Origin: Porphyromonas vaginalis
Lineage (GTDB): Bacteria > Bacteroidota > Bacteroidia > Bacteroidales > Porphyromonadaceae
Direction of reading: 5' to 3'
DNA length: 64,000 nucleotides
Assembly (NCBI RefSeq): GCF_958301595.1
Contig: NZ_CATQJU010000001.1
Location: 1,922,001-1,986,000 of the forward strand
The position numbers were made by a program, and so were the translations under genes. The notes beneath the pieces were generated by a model, which searched no databases, was not told the origin of the DNA, and saw nothing but the letters and a program-made list of their open reading frames with translations. This document shows, piece by piece, positions 2,423 to 64,000 of this stretch (positions within the stretch are counted from its first letter, which is position 1; the number at the start of each line of letters is the position of its first letter).

Positions 2423-2457
2423 ACCTTTTCATCAACACACTCAAAGAACAGACTACC

Positions 2458-3879: not shown

Positions 3880-3910
3880 TACCGCAAAAGCTAATCAGAA
3901 GGTCGAGAGT

Positions 3911-5188: not shown

Positions 5189-5232
5189 ATAGAAATTAAA
5201 TCATACACACCCTTTCAGCATATCACACTCAA

Positions 5233-6093
5233 ATGAAAGTCATTACAACGGTTGCTGCGCTACAGCAAGAACTCTCTAAGCTACGTCAGGAGAACCCCTC
5301 AGCCCGTGTAGGGCTAGTGCCGACTATGGGTGCCCTGCATGCGGGACACCTCAGCCTAGTGGCAGCTGCTAGAAAGCAGTACGACATCGTCGTCGTATCC
5401 GTATTTGTCAACCCCACGCAGTTCAACAACCCCGAAGACCTGCGCACCTATCCCCGCAAACCAGAGGAAGATTTAGCGCGTCTAAGTGACGCTCAGGTAG
5501 ACATCGCCTTCCTGCCCACTGTCGAGGAGATGTATCCCGAGGCGGATACCCGTCAGTTTGACTTCGGCTTCCTCGGAGAGACGATGGAAGGAGCGCATCG
5601 CCCAGGACACTTCAACGGAGTAGCACAGATCGTGAGCAAGCTCTTTATGCTCGTGCAGCCCGATGTCGCCTTCTTTGGCGAAAAGGACTTCCAGCAGATA
5701 GCTATCGTGCGGGAGATGGTTCGCCAACTCGCTCTGCCCGTAGAGATACACAGCTGTCCCATCATCCGCGAGGCTGACGGACTAGCTCTGAGCAGCCGTA
5801 ACCTCCTCCTGACCAGCGAGCAGCGTGACGTAGCGCCCCGCATCCACGACACACTTGTAGCTAGCCAAGAGCTCATTCCAGCACACTCGCCACGTGAAGT
5901 CGTTGACTTCGTCGTCTCACGCCTCGCAGAGCATCCGCTCCTGCGCCCCGAGTACTACCAGATTGTCGATGGCAAGACCCTTCGTCCCCTCGAGTCGTGG
6001 AGCGATAGCAGCGACCCCGTCGGCTGCATCGTCTGCTACTGCGGCGAGGTTCGTCTCATCGACAACATCCACTACGAGACCTCAGTCAACTAG
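5233..6093 (+). CDS. panC: Pantothenate synthetase PanC
   Basis: 286-residue enzyme that joins pantoate and beta-alanine with ATP to make pantothenate for coenzyme A. The VPTMGALHAGHLSLV block at about residues 29-43 carries the HIGH-type motif (HAGH, 36-39). FFGEKDFQQ and the ALSSRN segment are the KMSKS-like part of the active site. Length is normal. It is the last gene of the ybeY operon and is followed 27 bp later by a strong hairpin. Confidence 0.96.
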   Translation: MKVITTVAALQQELSKLRQENPSARVGLVPTMGALHAGHLSLVAAARKQYDIVVVSVFVNPTQFNNPEDLRTYPRKPEEDLARLSDAQVDIAFLPTVEEMYPEADTRQFDFGFLGETMEGAHRPGHFNGVAQIVSKLFMLVQPDVAFFGEKDFQQIAIVREMVRQLALPVEIHSCPIIREADGLALSSRNLLLTSEQRDVAPRIHDTLVASQELIPAHSPREVVDFVVSRLAEHPLLRPEYYQIVDGKTLRPLESWSDSSDPVGCIVCYCGEVRLIDNIHYETSVN

Positions 6094-6120
6094 CTGACCA
6101 ATCTACAAACGTATCGACAG

Positions 6121-6146
6121 GGGGCGAACCTCGCGAGGTTCGCCCC
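6121..6146 (+). terminator. Perfect palindrome downstream of panC, probable terminator
   Basis: A 26-bp perfect palindrome (left arm GGGGCGAACCTCG) followed by the T-rich TATTTCTACTCTT. It ends the operon. The GGGGCGAAC/GTTCGCCCC hairpin also resembles the dispersed REP-like hairpins elsewhere in the window, so it may be both a repeat and a terminator. Confidence 0.7.
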
Positions 6147-6271
6147 TATTTCTACTCTTCCTGAAGCTAACCATCAGTGCCACTAGGGTGAAACTGCTCG
6201 GAGAGACCATCGCTCGTGAGATTTGCGAACTCACTGGTTACTGAATTGTCTGTTGTTTCGATAAAAAACAC

Positions 6272-6279
6272 TATATTTG
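6272..6279 (+). promoter_or_regulatory. -7 promoter box upstream of the Omp28-like gene
   Basis: TATATTTG fits TAnnTTTG, with a TTGTCTG sequence at 6246-6252 at a suitable -33 distance. It implies a leader of about 135 nt before the ATG at 6421. Confidence 0.6.
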
Positions 6280-6420
6280 CCATCATAATAGCTCGCTGGT
6301 GCTACAGGCTGTCGGGATGACGAGACGCCACGCACTAATCTCAGGACACTCACACCTACTAGCACACGAGTCTAAGACATCTTCTAAAGACATAATAACA
6401 AACAGATTAAACAATCTATT

Positions 6421-8583: not shown

Positions 8584-10290
8584 ATGAAATTCTTTATCGC
8601 AAGAAATAGACGGATCTTCGCTATTTCAATCCTATTCGTGGCACTACTATCTGCTCATCTTGGAGCTACGTTATATGCTGCTGAGACTCGCTCTCTGAGC
8701 TATTCACCGCAAGCCACAGCGGCACCCGCACCTGCAACAGGCTCTCATATCTCGATCACCACGTCACGCAATGCTGGAGAGCAGATAACACTCAAGGTTA
8801 AAGTCGCTGAAGAGGCCGCGGAGCAGCAAGCTTGGGTCGATCTCAACGGCAATAAAATCTGTGACGACGGAGAGACGGTGTCTGAGTATGGCAGGGCTAT
8901 ACAGTATACTGTAAGCAATCAGATGATCAACGTCTATGGCAGTATCATAGAGTTTGACTGCTCTGAGAATGCATTGACGGCTATGGATCTATCTGCGTGC
9001 CCTTCTCTACTAGAGCTGTATTGCCTAAACAATGATCTGACCACATTGGACCTCTCAAAGTGTGGAGCGATCAGCATCTTGGACTGCTCGTTCAACCAGC
9101 TCACCTCGCTACTTCTACCTGCATCCAAGTCGCTCTCTGCTCTGGTTTGCTCGAATAATAAGCTCTCGAAGCTGGACCTCTCTTCCTCACACGACCTCCA
9201 GCGACTATACTGCACGGACAACTTACTGACAGAGCTAAGCGTCAAGGACTGCCCGAGCCTAAACTTGCTATACTGCTCGAATAATCAGCTCCAAGCTCTT
9301 GACATCTCAACGACTCAGGCACTCACGCTCTTGGACTGTCGGATCAATCAGATCAGTTCTTTGGATCTTGCCGCTGCTCCTGAGCTTTTTCTGATAGAAT
9401 GTGGCAAGAACAGTCTAACCAAGGTAGACATCTCTAAAAATGAGAAACTGCTCTACCTCTACTGCTATGACAATCAGCTCACCACAGTTGATGTCTCGGC
9501 AAATAAGCTACTTAATACCTTGGATTGTGCTGGCAACAACTTGCAGACGATAGACCTATCTCACAATCCCGATCTAGTTATGCTGTGCTGCGCAAGCAAC
9601 CACATACGAGGTGAGGGTATGATCAAGTTGATCCAAAGCCTACCTAATCGTGCGGAGGCTGACACGCCGGGTGTCTTCTACATTATTAATAACTTTCCCT
9701 CAGAGGCAAATGTTTGTCTCAAGAGCGATGTTGCTTTAGCTCATGACAAGAATTGGCAGGCATACTACTACCCAGGCTCTGGTGATGATATCTTCGAGTA
9801 TGAAGGATCAGAGCTGATCACCTATCGGGTATCTAAGGATATCAATGGTGGTGGTGACATTGTTATCAAAGGATGGGACGATCTTGACGAAGTGCCAGAG
9901 GGTACTGAACTGACGGTAGAGGTTTCTCCCCAAAAAGGATATACGCTAGGACGTCTGATGGCAGGAGATGAAGACATTACAGCGACGAAGCGATTTACAG
10001 TTCACTCTGACGTAGTAGTCTCAGCGACATTTGTCCTAGGCATTGAGGATATCTCATCCAGGCCACTAGAGGTCTATGCTAATTCAGCAGAAGGCTATGT
10101 AACTGTATCAGGTGCTGCTCAGGGAGAGGTTGTACGCATCTACTCTGCTGAGGGTGTTATGCTTGGTAGTACCGTTTCTGATGGCTCTGAGACAGTTAGG
10201 ATGGATCTCGGGTGCCTAAGTGATGGCGTCTACATCGTCCGCGTCTTCAGCGATTTACGTGTCTACACCTCCAAGGTGATCGTTCGCTAA
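8584..10290 (+). CDS. Leucine-rich repeat T9SS cargo protein (InlJ-like)
   Basis: 568 residues with an N-terminal hydrophobic export signal. From about residue 115 to 345 it carries roughly ten short LRRs of 20-22 residues with the pattern L-x-C-x-x-N-x-L-T-x-L-D-L-S. Near 430-485 an InlB-type domain follows (VEVSPQKGYTLGRLMAGDED), and then a T9SS sorting domain ending in SDLRVYTSKVIVR. The arrangement resembles the P. gingivalis internalin-like protein InlJ, a surface protein implicated in biofilm formation. Adhesion is inferred from that resemblance. Cysteines at regular LRR positions are conspicuous. Confidence 0.82.
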   Translation: MKFFIARNRRIFAISILFVALLSAHLGATLYAAETRSLSYSPQATAAPAPATGSHISITTSRNAGEQITLKVKVAEEAAEQQAWVDLNGNKICDDGETVSEYGRAIQYTVSNQMINVYGSIIEFDCSENALTAMDLSACPSLLELYCLNNDLTTLDLSKCGAISILDCSFNQLTSLLLPASKSLSALVCSNNKLSKLDLSSSHDLQRLYCTDNLLTELSVKDCPSLNLLYCSNNQLQALDISTTQALTLLDCRINQISSLDLAAAPELFLIECGKNSLTKVDISKNEKLLYLYCYDNQLTTVDVSANKLLNTLDCAGNNLQTIDLSHNPDLVMLCCASNHIRGEGMIKLIQSLPNRAEADTPGVFYIINNFPSEANVCLKSDVALAHDKNWQAYYYPGSGDDIFEYEGSELITYRVSKDINGGGDIVIKGWDDLDEVPEGTELTVEVSPQKGYTLGRLMAGDEDITATKRFTVHSDVVVSATFVLGIEDISSRPLEVYANSAEGYVTVSGAAQGEVVRIYSAEGVMLGSTVSDGSETVRMDLGCLSDGVYIVRVFSDLRVYTSKVIVR

Positions 10291-10343
10291 AGCTTCGTCA
10301 GATGCTATGATAGCCAACTACTGGACAGTAGTATGGCTGCAAA

Positions 10344-10384
10344 ACAAAGTCTGGGCTTGACCTCGTGTCAAGTCCAGACTTTGT
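10344..10384 (+). terminator. Terminator of the LRR gene
   Basis: An 18-bp stem with one G-T mismatch (ACAAAGTCTGGGCTTGAC / GTCAAGTCCAGACTTTGT), 5-nt loop, followed by CTTTTAT. It sits about 55 bp after the stop at 10290. Confidence 0.75.
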
Positions 10385-10430
10385 CTTTTATCGTATAGCG
10401 TTCGTGTCAAAGCGAGACGTGTAGCCCTTT

Positions 10431-10520
10431 GTAGGGACGCACGGCTCGTGCGTCCTTCCCCGTTAAAACCTTGACGCTGTAACCTTTGACACAACGGACG
10501 CTCAAGCCGAGCGTCCCTAC
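10431..10520. repeat. REP-like double-hairpin element, copy 1
   Basis: About 90 bp bounded by the inverted ends GTAGGGACGC and GCGTCCCTAC. It contains two hairpins, GGACGCACGGCTCGTGCGTCC-type at 10434-10454 and a GGACGCTC...GAGCGTCC hairpin at 10496-10516, joined by a 41-bp spacer with CCCCGTTAAAACC and TTTGACACAA. A second nearly identical composite lies at 52762-52850, and solo hairpins of the first type occur at 52443, 52623, 52711 and 54811. Confidence 0.8.
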
Positions 10521-10621
10521 AGGAGTCGTCCCCGCTTCGCCCGTCAAATCGTTACACGTCTCATCGGATCACTTGAGTTGCGAGCAGGGGCACGTGATTG
10601 GGCTGTGTGACTTATTTTTAT

Positions 10622-10629
10622 TACCTTTG
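10622..10629 (+). promoter_or_regulatory. -7 promoter box of the aldolase gene
   Basis: TACCTTTG, with TTG near 10597 at the usual -33 distance. Predicted leader about 95 nt. Confidence 0.65.
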
Positions 10630-10730
10630 AAGAGCTTACGGCAGAGACGTGTGGCGGATGAACTGCGTCTCGACCTTCTTTACTGAAGAGCCAAGTGCAT
10701 GACAAGCGTCTAACTTACTTTTTACACAAT

Positions 10731-11612
10731 ATGAATCAGAAGCAATTAGAACAGATGAAAAGCGGTCGTGGCTTCGTCGGAGCGCTCGACCAGAGTGGTG
10801 GCTCAACGCCCAAGGCTCTGAAGGCTTACGGCCTAACTGAGGAGGCCTGGAAGAATGAGGAGGAGATGTTTGACCTGATCCACCAGATGCGTACACGTAT
10901 GATCAAAAGCCCAGCCTTTGCTACGGGCAAGCTCGTGGGTGTGATCCTCTTCGAGCGCACGATGCGTGCTCAGATCGACGGTATGAATACGGCGGACTAT
11001 CTCTGGGAGAAGCTGCACATCGTCCCCTTCCTCAAGGTCGATAAGGGACTACAGGAGCTACAGGATGGCGTACAGCTGATGAAGCCATTCCCCGGACTCG
11101 ATGATCTGCTCAAGGATGCTACCAAGTACCATATCTTCGGCACCAAGATGCGTAGCGTCATCAAGGAGGCTAATGAGAAGGGTATCAAGGCTATCGTCGA
11201 TCAGCAGTTTGAGTGGGGCAAGCAGATCCTAGCTCATGATCTCGTGCCTATCCTAGAGCCTGAGGTGGACATACACTGCCCCGACAAGGCAGAGGCAGAG
11301 CAGATCCTCAAGCGTGAGCTACTCGCACACCTAGACAAGCTGGATCGCCCTGTCATGCTCAAGATCACGCTCCCCACGGAGGATAATCTCTACAAGGAGG
11401 TCATCGAGCATCCTAATATGCTTCGTGTAGTGGCTCTATCGGGTGGTTATAGCCGTGAGTACGCTAATGAGCTACTCGCTCGCAATAAGGGTGTGATCGC
11501 ATCCTTCTCTCGTGCACTGGCTGAGGGCCTGACGGCACAGCAGAGCGATGAGGAGTTCAACGCTACGATCGAGAAGTCGGTCGATGACGTCTATCAGGCT
11601 TCTATCAAGTAA
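10731..11612 (+). CDS. fda: Fructose-bisphosphate aldolase class I
   Basis: 293-residue class I aldolase, which cleaves fructose 1,6-bisphosphate to dihydroxyacetone phosphate and glyceraldehyde 3-phosphate through a Schiff-base lysine. The family start [20 protein letters not shown] is clear, as are [11 protein letters not shown] and the VMLKITLP segment holding the presumed catalytic lysine. The ATG at 10731 is chosen over 10695 because family proteins begin with MNxxQLEQM and 10695 adds an unrelated 12-residue leader. Monocistronic: its own promoter box lies upstream and a strong terminator follows. Confidence 0.93.
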
Positions 11613-11631
11613 ACCTATTATAGATACGTAA

Positions 11632-11671
11632 AAAGAGGAGCTATCGCCCGAAGGGGTGGTAGCTCCTCTTT
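11632..11671 (+). terminator. Terminator downstream of fda
   Basis: Perfect 12-bp stem AAAGAGGAGCTA / TAGCTCCTCTTT with a 16-nt loop. The A-rich left and T-rich right sides would work in either direction, also ending the convergent RRM gene. Confidence 0.75.
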
Positions 11672-11788
11672 GATTGGATTGGCTTAGATTATACCGAGCG
11701 TGTTGCTAGGCAACGCGCTCCATACCGTATCGTGAGATGAAGATGTCTAGTCTCGCTTCACAACGGCTCGAATCGGCTCAGAGACTTC

Positions 11789-12049
11789 TTAGAAGCGCTT
11801 CTCGCGGCGAGGACGATCCTCAGCCTCACGAATGAGGAGACGACGCCCCTCAAACTCCTGCTCGCTAAGTGCCTCGATAGCACGACGAGCATCCTCGTCT
11901 GCCATGTCGGCAAAGCCGAACCCGCGTGAACGCCCAGTGGCGCGATCCATGACGACACGAGCGTTGGAGACCTCTCCAAACTCGCCGAGTAGTTGCTCCA
12001 AGTCGTTCTCACGAACTCGGTAGCTCAAGTTGCCTAAATATAGGGTCAT
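11789..12049 (-). CDS. Small RRM RNA-binding protein
   Basis: 86-residue protein consisting of one RNA recognition motif. RNP-2 is seen as LYLGNL at residues 3-8 and RNP-1 as SRGFGFADM near residue 43. The tail is short and charged (RPRREKRF). Such glycine-poor RRM proteins are typical of Bacteroidota and act as global RNA-binding proteins, possibly in post-transcriptional control of polysaccharide and stress genes. The internal ATG at 12049 is used because the longer frame from 12112 would add 21 hydrophobic residues encoded by a purine-rich AAAGGGAAA tract that looks like leader sequence. Confidence 0.85.
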   Translation of the reverse strand: MTLYLGNLSYRVRENDLEQLLGEFGEVSNARVVMDRATGRSRGFGFADMADEDARRAIEALSEQEFEGRRLLIREAEDRPRREKRF

Positions 12050-12271
12050 AAAAGGGAAAAGGGAAAAAGGGAAAATAATTAGTGAAGCATTGGGGAGAGA
12101 GAGACACCTCACGAATGTGATACAGATCTCAAACTGTCTGATTTGCTACCGTACTGCCATCTATTGTCACGGCGATGTTGTGTCGTCATCACATAGCGGG
12201 CGAGAAAGGGCGACTATCTAAATTCTTAATGTGTGCCATAGCCGTCGATGCTTTTCTCCGTTTGCTGAGTG

Positions 12272-53793: not shown

Positions 53794-53888
53794 CAAGCGG
53801 TTAGGTACACTTTTTCCTCGAAAATCAAGCGGATTTCTCGAAAATGGCACTGTAACCGACTGACACTCAATGCGTCTTAAAATTAGCT

Positions 53889-54732
53889 CTCGCAGAGCAT
53901 CTTCCATTAGAACAAGGATTAAGACTTCTTGGAAGACCTTTTAGTGGTCTTCTTTGGCTGTCTCGCAGAGCATCTTCCATTAGAACAAGGATTAAGACTC
54001 GATGGCTTTACGCATTACCACCTTGAGGTTCTCTACTCGCAGAGCATCTTCCATTAGAACAAGGATTAAGACTTGGCTTTGAGGGCTTGCCAGCGGGCGG
54101 TCGTGGTCTCGCAGAGCATCTTCCATTAGAACAAGGATTAAGACAGTCTTATCTCTTTGCCGTCCGTTAGGTTGTAGATTCTCGCAGAGCATCTTCCATT
54201 AGAACAAGGATTAAGACTCTAGCACCTCTTTGCTTGCGATTCCTGCGTACTGCTCGCAGAGCATCTTCCATTAGAACAAGGATTAAGACAGATAGAGCAG
54301 TGTTGTATCGGGTTGTCTGTCTGTCTCGCAGAGCATCTTCCATTAGAACAAGGATTAAGACTGAAATTATTCTAAATATAATACAACCTTCTCCACATCT
54401 CGCAGAGCATCTTCCATTAGAACAAGGATTAAGACTCCTAGATATCCGTTGATCCTCCTGCGAATCTCCTCGCCTCGCAGAGCATCTTCCATTAGAACAA
54501 GGATTAAGACGCCCCCTCGGGGAGACGGCCACCCATGAGCTGAGCTACTCGCAGAGCATCTTCCATTAGAACAAGGATTAAGACCATAGTTTTGATTGGT
54601 TTTAATGATTAGGCAAACAATCTCGCAGAGCATCTTCCATTAGAACAAGGATTAAGACCCCTTGAGGTCGCAGCTCTCTAGCTTTGCTCTTAGGTCTCGC
54701 AGAGCATCTTCCATTAAAACAAGGATGTTGAG
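53889..54732 (+). CRISPR. CRISPR array, 12 repeats of 37 bp and 11 spacers
   Basis: The repeat begins CTCGCAGAGCATCTTCCATT and ends AGAACAAGGATTAAGAC. Eleven copies are identical: starts at 53889, 53962, 54036, 54108, 54181, 54253, 54325, 54399, 54474, 54548 and 54622. The twelfth (54696) has one substitution (ATTAAAACAA) and loses its last six bases, marking the leader-distal end. Spacers are 35-38 nt. Degenerate end on the right, promoter on the left, and the repeat 3' end ATTAAGAC (like other type III 8-nt handles) all indicate plus-strand transcription. Its length and the nearby genes fit a type III array processed by Cas6. Spacer sources were not identified. Confidence 0.98.
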
Positions 54733-55097: not shown

Positions 55098-56135
55098 ATG
55101 AAATACTTTTTCATCGGCATCGATGTATCCAAAGAGAAACTAGACGCCACAATGATTCACTACGAATCTGAATCAGACAGCGAGCAGCAGCTCGCCTACA
55201 CTACAGTAGAAAACAACCCTAAGGGGTTCCGGAGCCTCGTCTCTTGGAGTAAGAAGAACGCTGGTCGAAGAGTCAAGACCGACACCATGCTCTTCTGCTG
55301 TGAGACTACAGGAGGATACGATCGCGCACTCTGCGACTGGCTCTACGGCAACGGCCTAAACATCTGGCGCGAAAGTGCTCTGCAGATCAAGCGCAGCATG
55401 GGTCTGCGCAAAGGCAAGGACGACAAAGCCGACTCAGAGATGATCGCTTACTACGCCCTACGCTTCCGCTCCCAAGCCACTCTCTATAAACCTCTGGACG
55501 GGAACATGCGTAGCCTACGTGACCTCTTTCTCTATAGGCAGTCTCTAGTTGCCGAGAGACAGGCTAAGATGGTTAGTTCCAAGGAAAAACAGCACATCTC
55601 TAGCAAGTCTAAAGTCGACAACTTCATCTACCGAGATGCTCAGAAGGGCATCGACATCCTGACCAAAAGCATCAAAAAGTGCGAGTGCCGAATGCTTGAA
55701 ATCATCAAGGAAGACGAGGAGATGTACCGCAACTACCTGCACCTCATTTCCTGCAAAGGAGTGGGCCTCATCACCTCTGTCATGCTGATCATCTACACCG
55801 ACAACTTCAAGAGCTGGAATGCCAAGAAGATGGCTAGCTACTGCGGTATAGCACCCTTCTACGAGAGCTCTGGGAGCTCAGTCTTTCACAAAGCCAACAC
55901 AAGTGGCTACAGTAACCGACGGCTAAAAGGAATCTTGACCCAAGCAGCCCGAAGTGCCATAACGTATAACCCAACATTAAGACAATACTACCTACGCATG
56001 AAAGCCCAAGGCAAGCCCTACGGGGTCATCCTCAACAATGTCAACAATAAGCTCGTACACATTCTCTTCTCGTTGGTTCTGCACGACTGCGACTTCGAGC
56101 TGGACCACGAAGCGAAGAGAGCTCTTCGAGCCTAG
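55098..56135 (+). CDS. IS110-family DEDD transposase
   Basis: 345-residue recombinase. The RuvC-like N-terminal domain shows GIDVSKEKLD (first Asp, residue 9), CCETTGGYDR (Glu) and GKDDKADSEMIA (Asp-Asp), the DEDD set. A coiled middle leads to the C-terminal transposase_20 domain with SCKGVGLITSVML, YCGIAPFYESSGSS and TSGYSNRRLKGIL, which holds the presumed catalytic Ser. No stop or frameshift. It lies between the CRISPR array and the cas genes. Element borders are not visible because IS110 elements usually lack inverted ends. Confidence 0.94.
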   Translation: MKYFFIGIDVSKEKLDATMIHYESESDSEQQLAYTTVENNPKGFRSLVSWSKKNAGRRVKTDTMLFCCETTGGYDRALCDWLYGNGLNIWRESALQIKRSMGLRKGKDDKADSEMIAYYALRFRSQATLYKPLDGNMRSLRDLFLYRQSLVAERQAKMVSSKEKQHISSKSKVDNFIYRDAQKGIDILTKSIKKCECRMLEIIKEDEEMYRNYLHLISCKGVGLITSVMLIIYTDNFKSWNAKKMASYCGIAPFYESSGSSVFHKANTSGYSNRRLKGILTQAARSAITYNPTLRQYYLRMKAQGKPYGVILNNVNNKLVHILFSLVLHDCDFELDHEAKRALRA

Positions 56136-56756: not shown

Positions 56757-57425
56757 ATGGGCGAACTGAGAACGTTGCAAGTGCGATTTGACACACCGAT
56801 CGCAAGATGGGAGCTACCGCTACTGCGTGGCGCCATCATCAGCTTGCTGTCTCGAGACAATACGATATATCACAATCATGAGGCTGGGGGGCTACGCTAT
56901 GCTTACCCGTTAATCCAGTATAGACAGATCGATGGCAAGGCGGCACTGGTCTGTGTGGCCGATGGTGTGGATGCGCTCGGGGACTTGCTCCAGGCGGAGA
57001 GCCTAGAGACGATGATCGGCAAGCGTCACGTGACGCTAAGGATAGAGCATATCGATGCGGATAGACATGAGGTGGAGATGCGTGACGTGCCGGTGATCTA
57101 TCAGCTGAGTGACTGGCTACCGCTGAATGATAAGAACTACAAGCTCTTTGAGCGTGAGAGAGGGCTGGTGGCTCGTGTACTGAAGCTGCAGCAGATCCTC
57201 ACGGGCAATATACTCTCGATGCTCAAGGGGGTGGGCATCTTCGTCCCTTCGCAGCTCGAGACGGAGATTACAGCCATGACACCTATGCGATCTGTGAAGT
57301 ACAAGGGCGTGCCACTGGTGACACTGGACATACAGTTTGCCGCCAACGTATCGCTGCCCGATCAGATCGGATTGGGACGGCACGCTAGTGTAGGCTTTGG
57401 AACATTGACAAGAATTAGGAACTAA
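56757..57425 (+). CDS. cas6: Cas6-like CRISPR RNA endonuclease
   Basis: 222-residue RAMP protein. The N-terminus has RGAIISLLSRDNTIYHNH, and the C-terminus ends in the glycine-rich loop IGLGRHASVGFGTL (residues 204-217), the hallmark of Cas6. His38 or His40 are candidate catalytic residues. Cas6 cuts the pre-crRNA inside each repeat and leaves an 8-nt 5' tag, here expected to be ATTAAGAC. First gene of the cas operon; cas10 follows after 15 bp. The assignment to the Cas6b-like group is inference. Confidence 0.82.
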   Translation: MGELRTLQVRFDTPIARWELPLLRGAIISLLSRDNTIYHNHEAGGLRYAYPLIQYRQIDGKAALVCVADGVDALGDLLQAESLETMIGKRHVTLRIEHIDADRHEVEMRDVPVIYQLSDWLPLNDKNYKLFERERGLVARVLKLQQILTGNILSMLKGVGIFVPSQLETEITAMTPMRSVKYKGVPLVTLDIQFAANVSLPDQIGLGRHASVGFGTLTRIRN

Positions 57426-57440
57426 ATAAAGGACTTACTC

Positions 57441-58937
57441 ATGGGATACTTATATGGTGCCTCTGTGCAAGGGATCCAAAACTTTATCTTTCAGACGAAT
57501 GAGCTGAAAGATATCGTGGGGGCCAGTGAGCTGGTGGCGCAGATCTGCACGCAACTCTTTCGCGAGACGGTCGGAGCGCCCTATCGTGATGAGGCTCTGA
57601 TCATCGGTGCTGCGGGAAATGTGCGCTACTACTTTGACGATCTAGAGGTCTGTGCTAAGACTGTGCGCGACTTCCCTCGTCGTGTGATGATCGAGGCGCC
57701 TGGCATCACGATCAGTCAGGCTGTCGTAGAGATGACGGGAGACTTTCCCGATAGCATCAATGAACTGGAGGAGAAGCTCCGGGGCCAGCGTAACCAGCCC
57801 CAACCTAGTCTGACGCTCGGTGCGCTAGGTATGAAGCGATCCAACAAGACGGGGCTACCTCTAGTTGCTCCTGAGGGGCAAGATAAAAGTGTCGATATGA
57901 CGACAGCTGCTAAGAGACGCTATATTCACGCTCTATCGCTCGCTAAGAAAAGCTTTTATGGCACTGCTAGTGATAAGAAGGTGGATGCTGATCGATACCC
58001 TTATGACATCGCAAAGCTGACGGATAGGAACGACTGGATCGCTATCGTCCATGCAGATGGCAATAGCTTGGGTCAGATCGTACAGAGTATCGGGGGAGAC
58101 ATGGCGCAGTACCGGCGCTTCTCCCAGCTACTAGACGAGGCTACCGAGCGTGCTGCCAATGCAGCCTTTGAGAAGCTAGGAGTACGAGAAGGCGACTCCT
58201 ATCCACTGCGTCCTGTCGTACTGGGTGGTGATGATATGACGGTGATCATACGTGGTAGTCTGGCTATAGCGTATGCACAGGAGTTCATTCGTCAGTTTGA
58301 GTATCATACGGGGCAGGGAGAGCTAGGGCAGATCGTGCATGGTGCCACGAGGCTGCCCTGTCTGACGGCCTGTGCTGGGATTGCTTTTATCAAGTCTTCT
58401 TACCCCTTCCACTATGGCTATAAGCTAGCGGAGGAACTCTGCAGTGCAGCTAAGCATGATGCCAAGTTTCACTTAGCTGCTGGGGAGAGCATCCCCTCGT
58501 GCTTGATGTTTCACAAGGTGGAGGATAGCTACGTAGAGAGCTATGCGGACATCGTTGAGCGTGTGCTAATGCCTACAGATGCTCTCTCCTTTGCATTCGG
58601 GCCATACTACTTAGCGGAGCGCGCTGACTACTTCACCATAGATGAGTTGTTGTCGTACTGTGAGCGACTTCAGAAGATAGACGATGAGGGTGTCAAGTCA
58701 GGGCTACGCCAGTGGCTCACGCACATGCATCGGAGTGTAGACTTCGCTAGTCAGCATCTAGATCGTATGAAGAGTGTGTATAGTGGTGCTAGTAGTAAAC
58801 TGGTCACAGAGCTCTGCACAGCGAAATGTAGACGAAAAGAAACTGATGATAAGGACACACCGAGGGTGGTGACGGCATATCCCGCCTTTGATGTGCTCTC
58901 GCTGTATAGCATTATGAATGTGGTGACAAAAGATTAG
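57441..58937 (+). CDS. cas10: Cas10 (Cmr2-like palm polymerase, no HD domain)
   Basis: 498-residue large subunit of the type III effector. The first palm-like segment starts at the N-terminus (YLYGASVQGIQNFIFQTNEL). The catalytic palm has HADGNSLG (204-211) and GGDD (262-265), so synthesis of cyclic oligoadenylates from ATP on target recognition is expected. No HD-nuclease block precedes it, and the protein is about 200-300 residues shorter than HD-containing Cas10, so DNA cleavage by this subunit is unlikely. A helical C-terminal domain follows from about residue 390. No CARF effector is in the window. Confidence 0.93.
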   Translation: MGYLYGASVQGIQNFIFQTNELKDIVGASELVAQICTQLFRETVGAPYRDEALIIGAAGNVRYYFDDLEVCAKTVRDFPRRVMIEAPGITISQAVVEMTGDFPDSINELEEKLRGQRNQPQPSLTLGALGMKRSNKTGLPLVAPEGQDKSVDMTTAAKRRYIHALSLAKKSFYGTASDKKVDADRYPYDIAKLTDRNDWIAIVHADGNSLGQIVQSIGGDMAQYRRFSQLLDEATERAANAAFEKLGVREGDSYPLRPVVLGGDDMTVIIRGSLAIAYAQEFIRQFEYHTGQGELGQIVHGATRLPCLTACAGIAFIKSSYPFHYGYKLAEELCSAAKHDAKFHLAAGESIPSCLMFHKVEDSYVESYADIVERVLMPTDALSFAFGPYYLAERADYFTIDELLSYCERLQKIDDEGVKSGLRQWLTHMHRSVDFASQHLDRMKSVYSGASSKLVTELCTAKCRRKETDDKDTPRVVTAYPAFDVLSLYSIMNVVTKD

Positions 58938-58948
58938 AAACGGAAGCG

Positions 58949-59491
58949 ATGAAGTATCAAGTAGAATTCTTCTCTAACTGGCACTGTGGCTCTGGTCAGG
59001 CGGCTGGAGCTGATGCTGATGAGCTGGTCATAAAGGACCCAGATGGGCTCCCCTTTATCCCAGGCAAGACAATCAAGGGATTACTACGTGAGGCTGTGGC
59101 TAGCGTGCTACACTTCAGGGGGAGTGACGATATGACACTTGTTGACGAGCTCTTCGGTAGTGAAAACCAGCAAGGCAAGCTACACTTTACCAATGCCTCT
59201 CTGAGTGATGCTCTGACACAGCATATCAAAAACTCTGAAGCGTGTAAGGCACTACCCTCTATGCTATACTATACCCTGGCCTCTACGGCGATAGGAGATG
59301 ATGGCCTAGCTAAGGATCATAGTCTGCGACGTATCCAGACGACTATCCCGTGTACGCTATATGGCGAGATCATAGGCTTGGAGTCTGAGGAGCAAGAGGC
59401 GCTAATGGAGGACGCTTTGCACTTTGTCAAGCGACTAGGCTTAGGTAGGAATAGAGGCTACGGCCGTTGCAAACTTTCTAGAGTAGAGTAA
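58949..59491 (+). CDS. Cas7-family (Csm3-like) RAMP protein
   Basis: 180-residue single Cas7 unit. WHCGSGQAAGADADELVI near the N-terminus holds Asp22/Asp24, candidates for the target-RNA-cutting residue. The RAMP block LPFIPGKTIKGLLREAV follows (34-50), then GKLHFTNASL, and the glycine-rich loop LGLGRNRGYGRC is at 163-174. The stop TAA shares its last base with the ATG of the next gene (TAATG), so the two are translationally coupled. It belongs to the crRNA-binding backbone of the complex. Confidence 0.9.
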   Translation: MKYQVEFFSNWHCGSGQAAGADADELVIKDPDGLPFIPGKTIKGLLREAVASVLHFRGSDDMTLVDELFGSENQQGKLHFTNASLSDALTQHIKNSEACKALPSMLYYTLASTAIGDDGLAKDHSLRRIQTTIPCTLYGEIIGLESEEQEALMEDALHFVKRLGLGRNRGYGRCKLSRVE

Positions 59492-60963
59492 TGATGGAGG
59501 TATTGAAGTTTAAGTGTGAGCTGCTGTCTGATATCGTACTCAACGATACGCCAGCTACCGAAGGTAAGGCGCAGACACTACCCTTTATCCCTGGGAGTAA
59601 CTTCCTGGGCGTAGTAGCTAGCAAGCTATATGATAAGGAGGATGAGCGTAGCTTCTTGATATTTCATAGTGGTCATGTGCGGTTTGGAGATGCCAACCTC
59701 TCTCTAGGAGATCGCCGTAGCGTGAAGATCCCCGCCGCCATCTATAGTCCCAAGCGAGACGGTATAAAGCGGGGGGGCTATGTAAACTATCTTATCCCTG
59801 ATCCAAGCAGTGTAGAGATGAGAGCGAAGCAACTCAAGCAGGAGCGCAATAAGTTTTATGTCTTCGATGAAAGTCAGGCCTATGAGGTTAAGGTGGATAA
59901 GAGCTTCTTCATCAAGTCTGCCTATGACTCAGCGAGACGTCGTGCTCAGGACGAGCAGATGTTTGGCCTAGAGGCACTGCAGCGGGGCGTGACGCTATAC
60001 TTCTCAGTCGAGATAGATGAGGAAGCGCAAGCTTACCGCGAGGAGATCATCACGGCACTGGCCGGGCAGCGACATATAGGACGCTCCAGGACGGCTCAGT
60101 TTGGACTCGTGGAGATCTCTCCGTATGACTTCGAGGAGCCGACGAGTACGGATAAGGCTGTCGAGCTAGGGACGGCTGGTCGGTGCGTAGCCGTCTATGC
60201 GGACTCTAGACTGATCTTCCTTGATGACAACGGCTATCCGAGCTTTCACCCCACGGCTCAGGAGCTAGGCATAGAGGAGGGGCAGATCCTGTGGGACAAG
60301 TGTCAGGTACGCACCTTCCAGTATGCCCCGTGGAACTACAAGCTCCGCGCCTATGACTCTGACCGATGTGGCTTTGAGAAGGGGAGTGTCTTTATTGTTC
60401 AGACGAATGCGCAAGGGCTACATGATAGGTACATCGGGAGCTACTGTAACGAAGGCTTCGGGCGAGTCCTCTACAACCCCGCCTTCCTCCAGGCAGACCC
60501 TACTACGGGGCACTCTAGCTATCGCTTTATGAAGCCCTCTACGAGTCAAAAAGATAATGCTGCTCCTGCTCCTAAAGACTTGCCTGCACTCACTGGGGCT
60601 GACCAGTTGCTGTGGAACTATCTAGAGAGTAGAGTCTCTCGTCAGAGCGAGCAAAACGAGGTCTGGAATGTGGTAAATAGCTTTGTCAAGGAGCATGGAG
60701 GACGCTTCAAGAGAGAGGAAGCCTTTGCCTCTCAGTGGGGCTCTATCCGCAACTTGGCTATGGTCGCAAATACTCCTGACAATTTGATTGGGGCTATCGA
60801 AGGCTATCTCAATCATGGCGTAGCAAAGGATAAGTGGGAGAAGAACGGGCGCAAGAAGGTACTAGATAAGTTCCTAAAAGATCAAAAAGATAGTGGCTCT
60901 CTGCAAGAGCTCGTGATCAACCTAGCCTCTATGATGGGCAAGCACTGCTCAAACAACAACTAA
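59491..60963 (+). CDS. csx10: Csx10-type Cas5 RAMP protein with helical C-terminus
   Basis: 490 residues. Residues 1-213 form a first RAMP fold with PFIPGSNFLGVVAS (31-44) and a glycine-rich loop GQRHIGRSRTAQFG (192-205). Residues about 230-330 form a second fold ending in YIGSYCNEGFGRV (314-326). After a low-complexity Pro/Ala linker (about 350-366), the last ~125 residues look all-helical (LLWNYLESRVSRQ; VWNVVNSFVKEHGG; LDKFLKDQK). Csx10 caps the crRNA 5' handle in type III-D. The helical tail is proposed to stand in for the small subunit Cas11. No separate cas11 gene is seen. Confidence 0.85.
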   Translation: MMEVLKFKCELLSDIVLNDTPATEGKAQTLPFIPGSNFLGVVASKLYDKEDERSFLIFHSGHVRFGDANLSLGDRRSVKIPAAIYSPKRDGIKRGGYVNYLIPDPSSVEMRAKQLKQERNKFYVFDESQAYEVKVDKSFFIKSAYDSARRRAQDEQMFGLEALQRGVTLYFSVEIDEEAQAYREEIITALAGQRHIGRSRTAQFGLVEISPYDFEEPTSTDKAVELGTAGRCVAVYADSRLIFLDDNGYPSFHPTAQELGIEEGQILWDKCQVRTFQYAPWNYKLRAYDSDRCGFEKGSVFIVQTNAQGLHDRYIGSYCNEGFGRVLYNPAFLQADPTTGHSSYRFMKPSTSQKDNAAPAPKDLPALTGADQLLWNYLESRVSRQSEQNEVWNVVNSFVKEHGGRFKREEAFASQWGSIRNLAMVANTPDNLIGAIEGYLNHGVAKDKWEKNGRKKVLDKFLKDQKDSGSLQELVINLASMMGKHCSNNN

Positions 60964-60980
60964 CCCCTCTCTGAGAAGAT

Positions 60981-62381
60981 ATGGCACAAACATTTTATCC
61001 AATCCGATACACAGCGCGGATCATCATCGAGACCACCAGCCCGCTATCCATAGGGTGTGGAGATAAAAACATAATGACCGATGCGCCAGTCCTGCGAGAT
61101 GTCAATGGCTATCCTTTTATACCAGGTACTTCGCTCTCAGGTGTGATACGTCACTCGCTAGAGTCTCAAGAGCTAGGCAACACCCTCATGGGTTGGCAAG
61201 ACCCGCGGGGTGGTGAGGGCTCTCGTCTCATCATCAGCGATGCTAAGATCCTCAACAGCCGTGGAGAGGTGGTCGATGGCTTGGCACCCCGTGATACAGC
61301 AGATGCTGTACTTGAGGCTTATCAGGTGCTACCGATACGACAGCATGTACGTATAGGGCAGCGAGGCAGTGCGGAGCAACGAGGCAAGTTTGACGAGGAG
61401 GTGGTCTTCCGGGGTACGCGCTTCTGCTTTGATATGGAGCTTATTGCCGTGGAGGATCGAGAGGAGGCGGACTTTCTTAAGATTATTGACACGATCGGCT
61501 CCGATGCTTTTCGCTTGGGAGGCGGTAGTCGCAAGGGCTTCGGGAGTATACGGGTGATCTCGGCTCTCTATCGCAAGCTAGACCTAAGCCAGGAGAGCGA
61601 TCTGAGACTTTATCTAGACAACTCCTCTAGTCTGCGAGACGGACGAGAGGGCTTCGCATCTTACGAACTAAAGCCTGTCGCGGGTGAGGCTACGCTTCAC
61701 TATGAGGTCTCATTGCAGCCTGTAGACTTCCTTATGTTTGGCTCTGGTCTTGGAGATGATGAAGCGGACAAGGTCTACGTCTCTGAGCAGCAGATCGTAT
61801 GGGATCAGGAGGGAGTAGGCTCTATCCAAGAGCGTACAGCATCGATCCTCATCCCGAGTTCTTCGGTCAAGGGAGCTCTATCGCATCGCACCGCTTACCA
61901 CTACAATAAGCAGTGTGGCATCTTTGCCGACAGGCTGGAAGGGAGCGACTTAGAGAAGGAACATACGGGTCAAAACAACAAAGCTGTGCGTCTCCTCTTC
62001 GGAGGCGAGGGAGATAGTCAGGGTCGCGACAAGCGACGTGGCTGTGTACTCTTTACCGACCTCTTTATGGAGCGTCCAGATAGTACAGAGGATCATGTCT
62101 TCAATCATGTCAAGATCGACCGCTTTACAGGAGGAAGCGTCGGAGGCGCACTCTTCTCTGAGAAGGCGGTCTATACCAACGCTCAGGAGATCAAGCTAGA
62201 CATCTTCGTCGACAAGCAAGCTCTAGAGCAAGAGGAGACTGGGCAAGTTAGCGAGGCTATCACCGCTTTCGAGAGTGCTCTGAGAGATCTCTGTAGCGGG
62301 ATGCTTCCCTTAGGGGGTAACGTAAACAAGGGGTATGGACGATTCAGTGGTTCAATCAAAAGAAATGGCGAGACACTATGA
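60981..62381 (+). CDS. Double Cas7 (two fused Csm3-like RAMP domains)
   Basis: 466 residues containing two Cas7 units. Unit one: GCGDKNIMTDAPVLRD (25-40) with the likely catalytic Asp34, YPFIPGTSLSGVIRHSLE (44-61) and the loop LGGGSRKGFGSI (179-190). Unit two: FGSGLGDDEADKVYV (253-267) with Asp259/260/263, ILIPSSSVKGALSHR (289-303) and the loop PLGGNVNKGYGRFSG (443-457). This corresponds to the Cas7-2x subunit described for fused III-D complexes. It should cover two crRNA segments and provide two RNA cleavage sites. Overlaps the next gene by 4 bp (ATGA). Confidence 0.92.
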   Translation: MAQTFYPIRYTARIIIETTSPLSIGCGDKNIMTDAPVLRDVNGYPFIPGTSLSGVIRHSLESQELGNTLMGWQDPRGGEGSRLIISDAKILNSRGEVVDGLAPRDTADAVLEAYQVLPIRQHVRIGQRGSAEQRGKFDEEVVFRGTRFCFDMELIAVEDREEADFLKIIDTIGSDAFRLGGGSRKGFGSIRVISALYRKLDLSQESDLRLYLDNSSSLRDGREGFASYELKPVAGEATLHYEVSLQPVDFLMFGSGLGDDEADKVYVSEQQIVWDQEGVGSIQERTASILIPSSSVKGALSHRTAYHYNKQCGIFADRLEGSDLEKEHTGQNNKAVRLLFGGEGDSQGRDKRRGCVLFTDLFMERPDSTEDHVFNHVKIDRFTGGSVGGALFSEKAVYTNAQEIKLDIFVDKQALEQEETGQVSEAITAFESALRDLCSGMLPLGGNVNKGYGRFSGSIKRNGETL

Positions 62382-62779
62382 GAGTAGAGATTCAAGATAT
62401 TAATACCGAGCTGCGCTATGAGGGCTACCTCTGGCTGAGTAATGCTGATGCACCCATAGAGTATAGCGACAGCCCTCTGGATATGACGCTCTTTGAGGGG
62501 GCTAACCCATTCATCAGAGAGGGTTACCTATATAGTCAGGAGGGTAAGTGCTCCCTAACTATCAAGCACGCTGATGGACACTATCTAATCAATCAGTATG
62601 ATGTCCTAGAGGAGGATCTCAATGACCCAGAGGTGGAGCAGCTTCGCTTCGTGACTCATCGGATGTCTCAGCGCTATCTCAAGTTCCTTCGCTACTGGAG
62701 GGAAGATAAGTCGCCTGCTTGCTTAGACCTCCCCGTGAAGGTCTTCGACCGCATCGTATTTGTTGGATTTGAAAAGTAA
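62378..62779 (+). CDS. Csx19-like type III-D accessory subunit
   Basis: 133-residue protein with no RAMP motif. The EGYLWLSNADAPIEYSD start and the FIREGYLYS segment resemble the TIGR03984/Csx19 family, small proteins found only in type III-D loci. Position between the double Cas7 and the large RAMP gene supports this. The 4-bp overlap with the upstream gene and 6-bp gap to the next indicate tight coupling. Function in the complex is structural as far as known. The family call rests on memory of sequence and on context. Confidence 0.65.
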   Translation: MRVEIQDINTELRYEGYLWLSNADAPIEYSDSPLDMTLFEGANPFIREGYLYSQEGKCSLTIKHADGHYLINQYDVLEEDLNDPEVEQLRFVTHRMSQRYLKFLRYWREDKSPACLDLPVKVFDRIVFVGFEK

Positions 62780-62785
62780 TACGCT

Positions 62786-64000
62786 ATGTCAGTACACGCA
62801 CCATTTAACTTCATACCTCTGTCCGACCAGGTATACTTTCCCTCGTGGGCAGATCAGATCTCACACGATGTGCCGTTTTCTGATGGCGTAAGTGGCAAGA
62901 TTCGGCTTACGATTACGGCTGAGAGCGATATCTTCGTCCGAAATGGACAGAGCAAGGATGCTGAGGACAACCGCTTTAGCCAAGTCTCAGGTCGTTACTT
63001 CATCCCGGCCACCTCTATCAAGGGGGAGGTACGCAATCTTATGGAGATCATGAGCTTCGGTAAGATGAATCTCGACACACGGGCCAAGTTTGCACAGAGA
63101 GAGTGGAATAACACAGCCCTCTACACAATAAAGGATCCAAATGTGCAGAGGAATATCTGTTGTGGCTACCTGCGCAAGAAGGGTGATGCCTACGAGATCG
63201 TAGACCATGGTAAACCGCTTCGCATTAGTCATAGCGATATAGATGATTGGTTTGGAGGAGAGGTGCTAACGAGCCACTTTAGTCGTAATTCGCACATCGA
63301 TATCAATAAGACGAAGGAAGTGGATGGTCAGACATTTGACCCTAAGACAGCAGCCTTTAAGTATCATCTCTTTAAGGATGAGGATCTCGAAAATCTCTCC
63401 TTCACTGAAGTCCGAACCAACACCTTCACCTATGTGACCTGTGCAGATTGGGGAGAGTTTACTGGCGACATAGTCTTCACTGGCTCTCCAGACCAATGGA
63501 CGGAGGAGCGTGGTATGAACGCTGGCAAGTATTACGAGTTTGTCTTTCCGTCACAGGGGACGAGGTGCTATAGCCTCTCAGAGGAGGAGTTTGAGCATTA
63601 CGAATTCATCTACAAGGACTCTGACGACTGGAACTACTGGAAGTCTCACCTTACAGACACAGACAAGGGTGTGCCTGTCTTCTTTCGTGCAGAGGACAAC
63701 CAGATCAAAGACTTCGGACTGGCACTGCTCTATAAGTTGCCCTACGACAAGACGCCTTATGACTTACTTCCTCAGGCTCATCAGGAGGAGTCAACGCACG
63801 ATCTCGCCGAGTGCATCTTCGGCTACACCGGCAGGACGGACAGCTTGAGAGGGCGTGTACAGTTTTCCAATGCTTTCTCTACAAATGCTGAGCCCAGCGA
63901 GGAGGTTACGCTAGTCTTGGGGACTCCGAAGGCCTCTTACTATCCAATGTATATCGAGCAGACGGGGAGTAATGGTCGCACGGGTCAATATCAAACGTAC
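62786..64000 (+). CDS. Large RAMP protein of the TIGR03986 type (3' end outside the window)
   Basis: 405 codons are open from ATG 62786 to the right edge without a stop; the gene continues beyond. The start FNFIPLSDQVYFPSWADQIS and SHDVPFSDGVSGKIRL are typical of TIGR03986 CRISPR RAMP proteins. A RAMP block SGRYFIPATSIKGEVRNLME lies near residues 68-87. A long stretch (about 130-330) has no RAMP motif and may be an insertion, as in the Cas7-insertion subunit of III-D complexes. The catalytic Asp and C-terminal glycine loop cannot be judged because of truncation. Confidence 0.88.
   Translation, partial: MSVHAPFNFIPLSDQVYFPSWADQISHDVPFSDGVSGKIRLTITAESDIFVRNGQSKDAEDNRFSQVSGRYFIPATSIKGEVRNLMEIMSFGKMNLDTRAKFAQREWNNTALYTIKDPNVQRNICCGYLRKKGDAYEIVDHGKPLRISHSDIDDWFGGEVLTSHFSRNSHIDINKTKEVDGQTFDPKTAAFKYHLFKDEDLENLSFTEVRTNTFTYVTCADWGEFTGDIVFTGSPDQWTEERGMNAGKYYEFVFPSQGTRCYSLSEEEFEHYEFIYKDSDDWNYWKSHLTDTDKGVPVFFRAEDNQIKDFGLALLYKLPYDKTPYDLLPQAHQEESTHDLAECIFGYTGRTDSLRGRVQFSNAFSTNAEPSEEVTLVLGTPKASYYPMYIEQTGSNGRTGQYQTY

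What the first reader, a model, noticed from the sequence alone, without database searches (positions are those of the whole stretch)
58949..62779. Type III-D cas operon with Cas7 and a Cas5-Cas11-like protein encoded separately but coupled by TAATG
The order single Cas7, then Csx10 with a helical tail, then double Cas7, Csx19-like, then a large RAMP with an apparent insertion, matches the subunits of the fused III-D complex (Cas7-5-11, Cas7-2x, Csx19, Cas7-insertion). Here the Cas7 and the Cas5 parts are two genes whose stop and start share one base. The Csx10 C-terminal ~125 residues look all-helical and there is no separate small-subunit gene. This would be a direct intermediate towards the Cas7-5-11 fusion and, further, the single-protein III-E effectors.
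Basis: partly seen in the sequence, partly recalled or inferred. Interest (0 to 1): 0.75.

Follow-up and report, generated by a model that had tools for sequence, protein, structure and literature searches.

The report
CRISPR III-D operon, Cas5-Cas11 fused protein
A Porphyromonas-like bacterium carries a CRISPR immune operon in which one backbone protein probably carries its own helper domain, a common arrangement in its order rather than a unique missing link, although relatives show that a further gene fusion happened more than once.

Summary
Window 56757-62779 and beyond holds cas6, cas10 (GGDD), single cas7, csx10, double cas7, csx19 and insertion-bearing cas7: a type III-D operon, with no separate cas11 seen up to cas2. 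The csx10 tail (about residues 369-488) is a five-helix domain (pLDDT 88). Its two best matches among 350,542 PDB chains are both the Cas7-Cas5-Cas11 chain of Synechocystis III-Dv (probability 0.92, 0.72; E-values weak, 0.42 and 1.2). A profile comparison puts its invariant SQWGxIR on the III-Dv Cas11 stretch holding Arg678 (0 of 200 shuffles as good). So Csx10 is most likely a Cas5-Cas11 fusion.

"Direct intermediate" is not supported as worded. The unfused arrangement is standard in the Bacteroidales loci seen, and TAATG is not conserved. Trees put cyanobacterial fused Cas7-5-11 nearer to cyanobacterial unfused systems. One Bacteroidales relative has an independently fused 704-residue Cas7-Cas5-Cas11 (AU test). 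Best reading: Cas11 joined Cas5 early; Cas7 joined later, at least twice; this operon keeps the earlier state.

The parts
53888..54731 (+). CRISPR array: 12 copies of a 37-nt repeat (last one degenerate), 11 spacers; repeat ends ...ATTAAGAC
   Evidence: (12 copies, spacing 72-75)
56757..57425 (+). cas6 (Cas6b-type crRNA-processing endonuclease)
   Evidence: Pfam Cas6b_C 5.1e-29 and Cas6b_N 3.2e-21
57441..58937 (+). cas10 (Cas10d), palm GGDD intact at 58224-58235; no HD family match
   Evidence: PADLOC Cas10d 9.4e-174; best PDB match III-Dv Cas10 8s9t_C 8.3e-31; GGDD aligned; only palm2 in Pfam
58949..59491 (+). cas7 (single RAMP subunit); D24 aligns with catalytic D26 of Synechocystis Cas7-5-11
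59489..59493 (+). TAATG: cas7 stop and first csx10 ATG share one base; second ATG at 59494-59496 matches the start of homologues
59491..60963 (+). csx10 = Cas5 part (about residues 1-332), variable linker (about 333-368), Cas11-like tail
   Evidence: PADLOC Cas5_IIId over residues 2-488; profile match to III-Dv Cas7-Cas5-Cas11 1.7e-9 through the Cas5 part; linker variable
60595..60954 (+). Cas11-like five-helix tail of Csx10 (about residues 369-488); SQWGSIR motif at 60730-60750
   Evidence: AF2 pLDDT 88.3; Foldseek top two chains 8s9t_A, 8s9x_A; profile alignment
60981..62381 (+). cas7-2x (double Cas7); D34 and D263 align with catalytic D33 and D246 of III-Dv Cas7-2x
62378..62779 (+). csx19
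   Evidence: TIGR04423 1.5e-33, PADLOC Csx19 1.7e-51
62786..64000 (+). cas7-insertion, first 405 codons; the gene runs on to 65137 (783 aa in L002:10787-13138)
   Evidence: TIGR03986 2.3e-76; PADLOC Cas7_IIId 8.6e-143

Best explanation
A type III-D CRISPR effector operon. Cas6 cuts the array transcript. Cas10, Cas7, Csx10 (Cas5 plus Cas11), Cas7-2x, Csx19 and Cas7-insertion then assemble on one crRNA, probably one copy each as in III-Dv. The Csx10 N-terminal part holds the crRNA 5' handle at the foot. Its helical tail, on a flexible linker, reaches back along the Cas7 filament as the small subunit, possibly placing the conserved R420 near a Cas7-2x active site. Target RNA is cut at the Cas7 aspartates (D24; D34 and D263 of Cas7-2x), and Cas10 makes cyclic oligoadenylate that switches on the downstream Card1-like and TIGR02221 CARF effectors. 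In evolution, Cas11 was joined to Cas5 first; the join of Cas7 to that protein is a later, repeated step that this operon has not taken. Shown here: gene content, predicted tail fold, residue conservation, a fused relative outside the cyanobacterial branch. Inferred: stoichiometry, placement of the tail, arginine function, signalling, single origin of the Cas5-Cas11 join.
For: Gene families. The Csx10 profile finds only III-Dv Cas7-Cas5-Cas11 in the PDB at E up to 1 (1.7e-9). Tail model pLDDT 88.3, five helices. Foldseek ranks 1 and 2 of 350,542 chains are 8s9t_A and 8s9x_A (probability 0.92, 0.72; TMq 0.51, 0.54); the other 48 rows listed of 86 have probability 0.18 or less. Control: in the 50 of 129 matches listed for the helical tail of Cas7-insertion from the same operon no small subunit appears (see evidence against). 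Profile comparison of 26 Bacteroidota tails with 9 cyanobacterial-type tails: score 22.05, null maximum 17.9, 0 of 200 shuffles as high, putting SQWGSIR on TQLGGFR; the R there is residue 678 of Synechocystis, a site-2 active-site residue in PMC11026444 (passages). S, Q, W, G, I and R of the motif are invariant in 19 of 19 tails. Catalytic Asp of Cas7 aligned in 26 of 26 rows that reach it (27 rows, one gap), D33 of Cas7-2x in 24 of 25, D246 in 23 of 25, GGDD in 23 of 23 Cas10 rows.
Against: Foldseek E-values are weak (0.42, 1.2), and the control shows that unrelated short helical chains can reach probability 0.84-0.85, so 0.92 is not decisive alone; a Csx29-complex chain (7y9x_B) also appears there at rank 50, probability 0.06. 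Profile-profile probability is low (3.8%, E 0.011 for one comparison). The tail alone finds no CRISPR chain by sequence in the PDB. Against the two fused cyanobacterial tails alone the score is near chance: 9 of 100 shuffles as high, 3 of 100 with Persicobacter added. Of the 9 cyanobacterial-type tails, R at the R678 place is in Synechocystis, L067 and L071 only (Nostoc edaphicum K; the four unfused cyanobacteria Q or M; L068 L), and L068 and L071 lack the SQ pair. Synechocystis Cas7 D140 is H124 in the window. The matched region of 8s9t_A was not printed; that it is Cas11 is inferred from the all-helical query. No complex was modelled. Because of the control probabilities and the unconserved R, my confidence was lowered from 0.85 to 0.8 on rechecking.
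Confidence: 0.8

Rival explanations
1. The operon is a direct ancestor-like intermediate on the branch that leads to Synechocystis-type Cas7-5-11.
For: Same gene order and domains as III-Dv; Cas7 and Csx10 genes adjacent and touching.
Against: Cas7-2x and Cas10 trees put fused cyanobacterial systems with unfused cyanobacterial ones (100/99 and 100/98) apart from the Bacteroidales rows (with 37 rows). The trees carry long-branch warnings, and in the Csx10 tree the deep joins are weak (50/5). The junction is not conserved.
Confidence: 0.07
2. The Csx10 tail is an unrelated helical extension (for instance an assembly or protein-contact module), and the complex uses only the Cas10 C-terminal domain as small subunit.
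For: Weak significance of the structure and profile matches; R678 place not conserved in the unfused cyanobacterial tails. Literature reports a III-A2 variant with no identifiable Cas11 (PMC12669027, passages).
Against: Both top Foldseek hits are III-Dv Cas7-Cas5-Cas11; 0 of 200 shuffles as good; same place in the protein as the III-Dv Cas11 domain; no small subunit among the listed matches of the control tail.
Confidence: 0.15
3. Csx19 is the small subunit (one PADLOC model named Cas11 matches it).
For: PDLC01049 'Cas11' E 3.6e-24 against the 133-aa protein.
Against: Five PADLOC Csx19 models match, three of them better (best 1.7e-51), and TIGR04423. In III-Dv Csx19 contains beta-sheets and sits between Cas5 and Cas10 (PMC11026444, passages).
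Confidence: 0.03
4. The fused form is ancestral and the two-gene form here is a later split.
For: Counts of changes cannot tell gain from loss by themselves (note).
Against: Fused in 4 of 37 rows; by my reading of the tree a fused root still needs three changes, one of them a new fusion in L066 (inference).
Confidence: 0.08

Closest known systems
Type III-Dv effector of Synechocystis sp. PCC 6803 (PDB 8s9t; PMC11026444)
   Same: Same subunits and order, main Cas7 Asp residues, GGDD Cas10, Csx19, Cas7-2x and Cas7-insertion; Cas11 domain at the C-terminus of the Cas5 part.
   Different: There Cas7 is fused to Cas5-Cas11 in one 791-aa protein; here Cas7 is a separate 180-aa protein. D140 of its Cas7 is H124 here. 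Cas7-insertion has an extra helical C-terminal tail here.
Type III-D of Saccharolobus solfataricus (PDB 8bmw; PMC9945777)
   Same: Type III-D with Cas10, a Cas5 and diverse Cas7 subunits.
   Different: There cas11 is a separate gene with five copies of its product in the complex, and seven Cas7 subunits come from five genes (passages).
Unfused cyanobacterial III-D (Nostoc sp. ATCC 53789, Anabaena cylindrica, Planktothrix, Sphaerospermopsis plasmids)
   Same: Separate cas7 followed by a long csx10, cas7-2x, csx19, cas7-insertion.
   Different: Different clade, nearer to the fused III-Dv systems; tails share the SQ pair but not the R of the motif.
Bacteroidales fused Cas7-Cas5-Cas11 (L066/L039, genome G681)
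   Same: Same clade as the window and same FASQWG tail; Cas7 joined to Csx10 by a linker of roughly 20 residues.
   Different: One 704-aa protein instead of two genes.
Type III-E Cas7-11 (gRAMP)
   Same: Remote matches of Cas7-2x and Cas7-insertion.
   Different: Single protein without Cas10 or Cas5 (PMC11026444, passages).

Membership tests
CRISPR type III-D | csx10-type Cas5 | tested here: met
   PADLOC Cas5_IIId 9.2e-164 and 3.6e-145 over nearly all of the protein
CRISPR type III-D | Cas10 and several Cas7/RAMP subunits, often Csx19 | tested here: met
CRISPR type III-D | CRISPR array and Cas6 beside the operon | tested here: met
Type III-Dv (Cas7-Cas5-Cas11 fusion) | Cas7, Cas5 and Cas11 in one polypeptide | tested here: not met
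   Cas7 is a separate ORF ending in TAA at 59489-59491
Type III-Dv (Cas7-Cas5-Cas11 fusion) | Cas7-2x, Csx19, Cas7-insertion | tested here: met
Cas11 domain in the Csx10 tail | Small-subunit helical fold | tested here: inconclusive
   Foldseek top two = III-Dv Cas7-Cas5-Cas11 chains, but E 0.42 and 1.2; the right protein at weak significance
Cas11 domain in the Csx10 tail | Sequence homology to a known Cas11 | tested here: inconclusive
   0 of 200 shuffles as good, but profile probability only 3.8%; PDB search by sequence negative; near chance against the two fused tails alone
Cas11 domain in the Csx10 tail | Position on the Cas7 filament and role in target cleavage | not testable with these tools
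   needs a structure of the complex
Type III-E (Cas7-11) | single effector protein, no Cas10 | tested here: not met
   cas10 present, subunits separate

The most novel reading that the evidence does not exclude
The order of gene fusion in type III-D effectors can be read from living relatives: Cas11 joined Cas5 once, before the Bacteroidales and cyanobacterial lineages of the system parted, and Cas7 was then joined to this Cas5-Cas11 protein independently in cyanobacteria and in Bacteroidales (and perhaps a third time, L068). The two-gene operon in the window is the surviving earlier state, so fusion towards single-protein effectors is a repeated outcome and not one lucky event.
Probability: 0.58. 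Interest if true: 0.55.

Novelty: new variant of a known kind. Interest (0 to 1): 0.42.

Why it matters
Single-protein type III effectors are useful RNA tools, and how they arose from multi-subunit complexes is an open question. This family suggests the step order (Cas5-Cas11 first, Cas7 later and repeatedly) in natural relatives, some with cas7 and csx10 in one frame with a single stop codon between them (L073; L008, L011, L022 and L067 have the same layout). The effect of fusion on assembly and stoichiometry could therefore be tested with natural pairs. The operon itself is an ordinary member of a lineage found across Bacteroidales.

Tried and rejected
Similarity by eye between the Csx10 tail and the Cas7-insertion tail (both hold a W..NG stretch): rejected, profile score no better than shuffles (23 and 35 of 100 as high), and no small subunit among the 50 listed matches of the Cas7-insertion tail. 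That tail is absent or nearly so in 4 of 14 aligned rows (L010, L011, L020, L023).

Sequence search of the tail against the PDB: only lectin matches that look like chance. Single-sequence search of Csx10 against the PDB: nothing. Searches of the genome for Csm2 and Cmr5 families: nothing. Array against phage records: one 28-base match, E 0.3, chance level. III-Dv Cas10 residues H504 and R507 named in the paper could not be mapped, because the annotated 558-aa Cas10 has other letters there.

Tree limits: long-branch warnings (Photobacterium, L068, Persicobacter and others); rows under a length limit were left out (L014 and L019 from Cas7-2x; L005, L009, L018 and L021 from Cas10); Photobacterium was left out of the Csx10 tree (38 of 39 rows). 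L068 joining the Synechocystis pair is not rejected (AU p 0.117), so only two independent fusions are claimed. The AU test assumes groups named before the tree was seen, which was not the case. Subunits may have been shuffled between operons (L071 has a Synechocystis-like Cas7-insertion beside other subunits nearer to the unfused Nostoc system), so one subunit's tree need not hold for all. The L066 fusion rests on one draft assembly; the other 3 of the 4 matching genomes among 18 of its family have separate frames (L073 read in full). In the order-wide search 10 of 393 genomes matched: 8 in open frames of 479-522 aa, one fused (731), one weak fragment with stops. In one search, 4 of 39 tails (L022, L043, L069, Photobacterium) were dropped because the pattern marking the end of the Cas5 part failed.

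On rechecking I lowered the best explanation from 0.85 to 0.8, raised the unrelated-tail rival from 0.12 to 0.15 and lowered the novel case from 0.6 to 0.58, because of the control probabilities and the unconserved R.
Full report
What is there. The window is 64 kb of one 2.5-Mb genome in two contigs. The closest named relative found is Porphyromonas uenonis (Csx10 91% identical). Downstream of a CRISPR array (53888-54731, 12 copies of a 37-nt repeat) and an IS110-type transposase lie cas6, cas10, cas7, csx10, cas7-2x, csx19 and cas7-insertion. The last gene leaves the window. In the same genome it is followed by a Card1-like CARF nuclease, a TIGR02221 CARF protein, cas1, a CRISPR-associated primase-polymerase type B and cas2. 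No separate small-subunit gene was seen.

The junction. The cas7 stop TAA (59489-59491) and an ATG (59491-59493) share one base, but a second ATG follows directly and is the one that matches the first residue of homologues. Of 19 loci only the window and P. uenonis have TAATG; L021 has TAGTG; the others overlap by 4 to 20 nt or are separated by a few nt (for L005 and L016 the script listed no start, and the sequence printed was read by eye). The overlap looks like an ordinary operon junction, not a special device.

The tail. The csx10 product matches PADLOC Cas5_IIId models over its whole length, so the field already holds this protein family. A profile of 19 relatives finds only the III-Dv Cas7-Cas5-Cas11 chain in the PDB, at E 1.7e-9, through the Cas5 part. 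The tail alone (133 residues, 19 sequences) was modelled with mean pLDDT 88.3 as five helices. Foldseek against 350,542 PDB chains ranks 8s9t_A and 8s9x_A first and second, both that same III-Dv protein, with probability 0.92 and 0.72 and TM-score 0.51 and 0.54, but with weak E-values of 0.42 and 1.2; the other 48 rows listed (of 86 matches) have probability 0.18 or less. As a control, the helical tail of Cas7-insertion from the same operon was searched (pLDDT 80.8). The 50 rows listed of 129 hold designed bundles and other helical proteins and no small subunit, but two kinds of short helical domain reach probability 0.84-0.85, so the probability alone is not decisive; a chain of the Cas7-11-Csx29 complex stands at rank 50 with probability 0.06.

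Sequence support. Tails of 26 Bacteroidota proteins against 9 cyanobacterial-type tails score 22.05 by profile-profile comparison; 200 column shuffles gave at most 17.9. The alignment covers 55 columns and puts SQWGSIR (window residues 414-420) on TQLGGFR of Synechocystis. That arginine is residue 678, which the III-Dv paper names among the site-2 active-site residues (PMC11026444, passages). Against that: profile probability is only 3.8%; the comparison with the two fused tails alone is near chance; and of the nine cyanobacterial-type tails only Synechocystis, L067 and L071 have R there, while L068 and L071 lack the SQ pair. Structure and sequence nevertheless point to the same domain by separate routes, so I take the tail as Cas11 with about 80% confidence.

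Catalytic residues. Window Cas7 D24 aligns with Synechocystis D26; Cas7-2x D34 and D263 align with D33 and D246; GGDD is intact in 23 of 23 Cas10 rows; Synechocystis Cas7 D140 is H124 here. With Card1-like and CARF effectors downstream, the likely action is target RNA cleavage plus cyclic oligoadenylate signalling (inference from the families).

Is it an intermediate? In 19 of 19 loci cas7, csx10 and cas7-2x are separate genes in this order; csx19 follows in 16, and the other 3 stretches end before it. Cyanobacterial plasmids show both forms: fused in Synechocystis and Nostoc edaphicum, unfused in Nostoc ATCC 53789, Anabaena, Sphaerospermopsis and Planktothrix; a Persicobacter and a Photobacterium plasmid are unfused. 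Trees of Cas7-2x and Cas10 group fused and unfused cyanobacteria together (100/99 and 100/98) apart from the window's group; with more rows, three Bacteroidota systems (L067, L068, L071) join the cyanobacterial side. So the window is not on the branch to Synechocystis Cas7-5-11, with the caution that long branches are in play.

A second fusion. A search of 393 genomes of the order found one (G681) whose Csx10 lies in a 731-residue frame. Its ORF is a 704-aa Cas7-Cas5-Cas11 protein with a linker of roughly 20 residues. It lies inside the window's clade on Cas7-2x and Csx10 trees. Holding it with the cyanobacterial fused pair is rejected (AU p 1.7e-69). A third fused protein (L068, 765 aa, another Bacteroidota family) may or may not belong with the cyanobacterial pair (AU p 0.117). 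A relative from the genus of G681 (L073) has cas7 and csx10 in one frame with a TAA between them. Fusion of Cas7 to Cas5-Cas11 thus most likely happened at least twice.

Compared with what is known. III-Dv is described as an intermediate that keeps the gene order of III-D1 (PMC11026444, passages). The archaeal III-D complex has a separate cas11 (PMC9945777, passages). A 2011 paper already noted fusions between adjacent genes in Csx10 systems (PMC3150331, passages), and the 2025 classification has III-I arising from a different III-D variant than III-E (PMC12669027, passages). Among the listings of the searches, and the passages read of five papers, I did not see the Cas5-Cas11 two-gene state or repeated Cas7-5-11 fusion described; the main 2021 papers on Cas7-11 (recalled) and supplements were not read, so this is weak evidence of newness.

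Verdict. A real, conserved type III-D operon with a probable Cas5-Cas11 protein; the usual form in its order; not a direct ancestor of III-Dv; useful as the unfused partner of a fusion that recurred.

Noticed in passing
L017, cas7-2x ORF 9530-10939 (Bacteroides sp. UBA1317): Both positions aligned with catalytic aspartates D33 and D246 of III-Dv Cas7-2x are lysine (K40, K272 counted from the open frame), while the single Cas7 aspartate is intact. Possibly a complex with fewer cutting sites.
   Followed up: no
L073 2-1498 (G818): Cas10 reads LSGEDYN where others read GGDD, so the signalling palm may be inactive in this Bacteroidales III-D system.
   Followed up: no
L002:14142-15842 (window coordinates 66141-67841, beyond the window): TIGR02221 CARF protein with a C-terminal Csx20-like match below its cut-off (NF040559, residues 487-566); Persicobacter has csx20 as its own gene, and in L066 the matching part lies in its own ORF.
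   Followed up: partly
L002:16956-17969 (window coordinates 68955-69968, beyond the window): CRISPR-associated primase-polymerase type B (NF040562, 430 bits) between cas1 and cas2.
   Followed up: no
L002:12479-13135 (window coordinates 64478-65134, beyond the window): Cas7-insertion carries a helical C-terminal tail of variable length, missing or nearly so in L010, L011, L020 and L023; function unknown, no Cas11 match.
   Followed up: partly
L067 (G168), minus strand, 3970-6315 and 1961-3991: Two different Cas7-insertion genes in tandem in one III-D operon (781 and 676 codons).
   Followed up: no
L071 (G246), 9713-12163: Cas7-insertion is close to that of Synechocystis (528 bits) while the other subunits are nearer to the unfused Nostoc system, which hints at subunit shuffling between III-D operons.
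   Followed up: no
window 55098-56135: IS110-family transposase between the CRISPR array and cas6.
   Followed up: no
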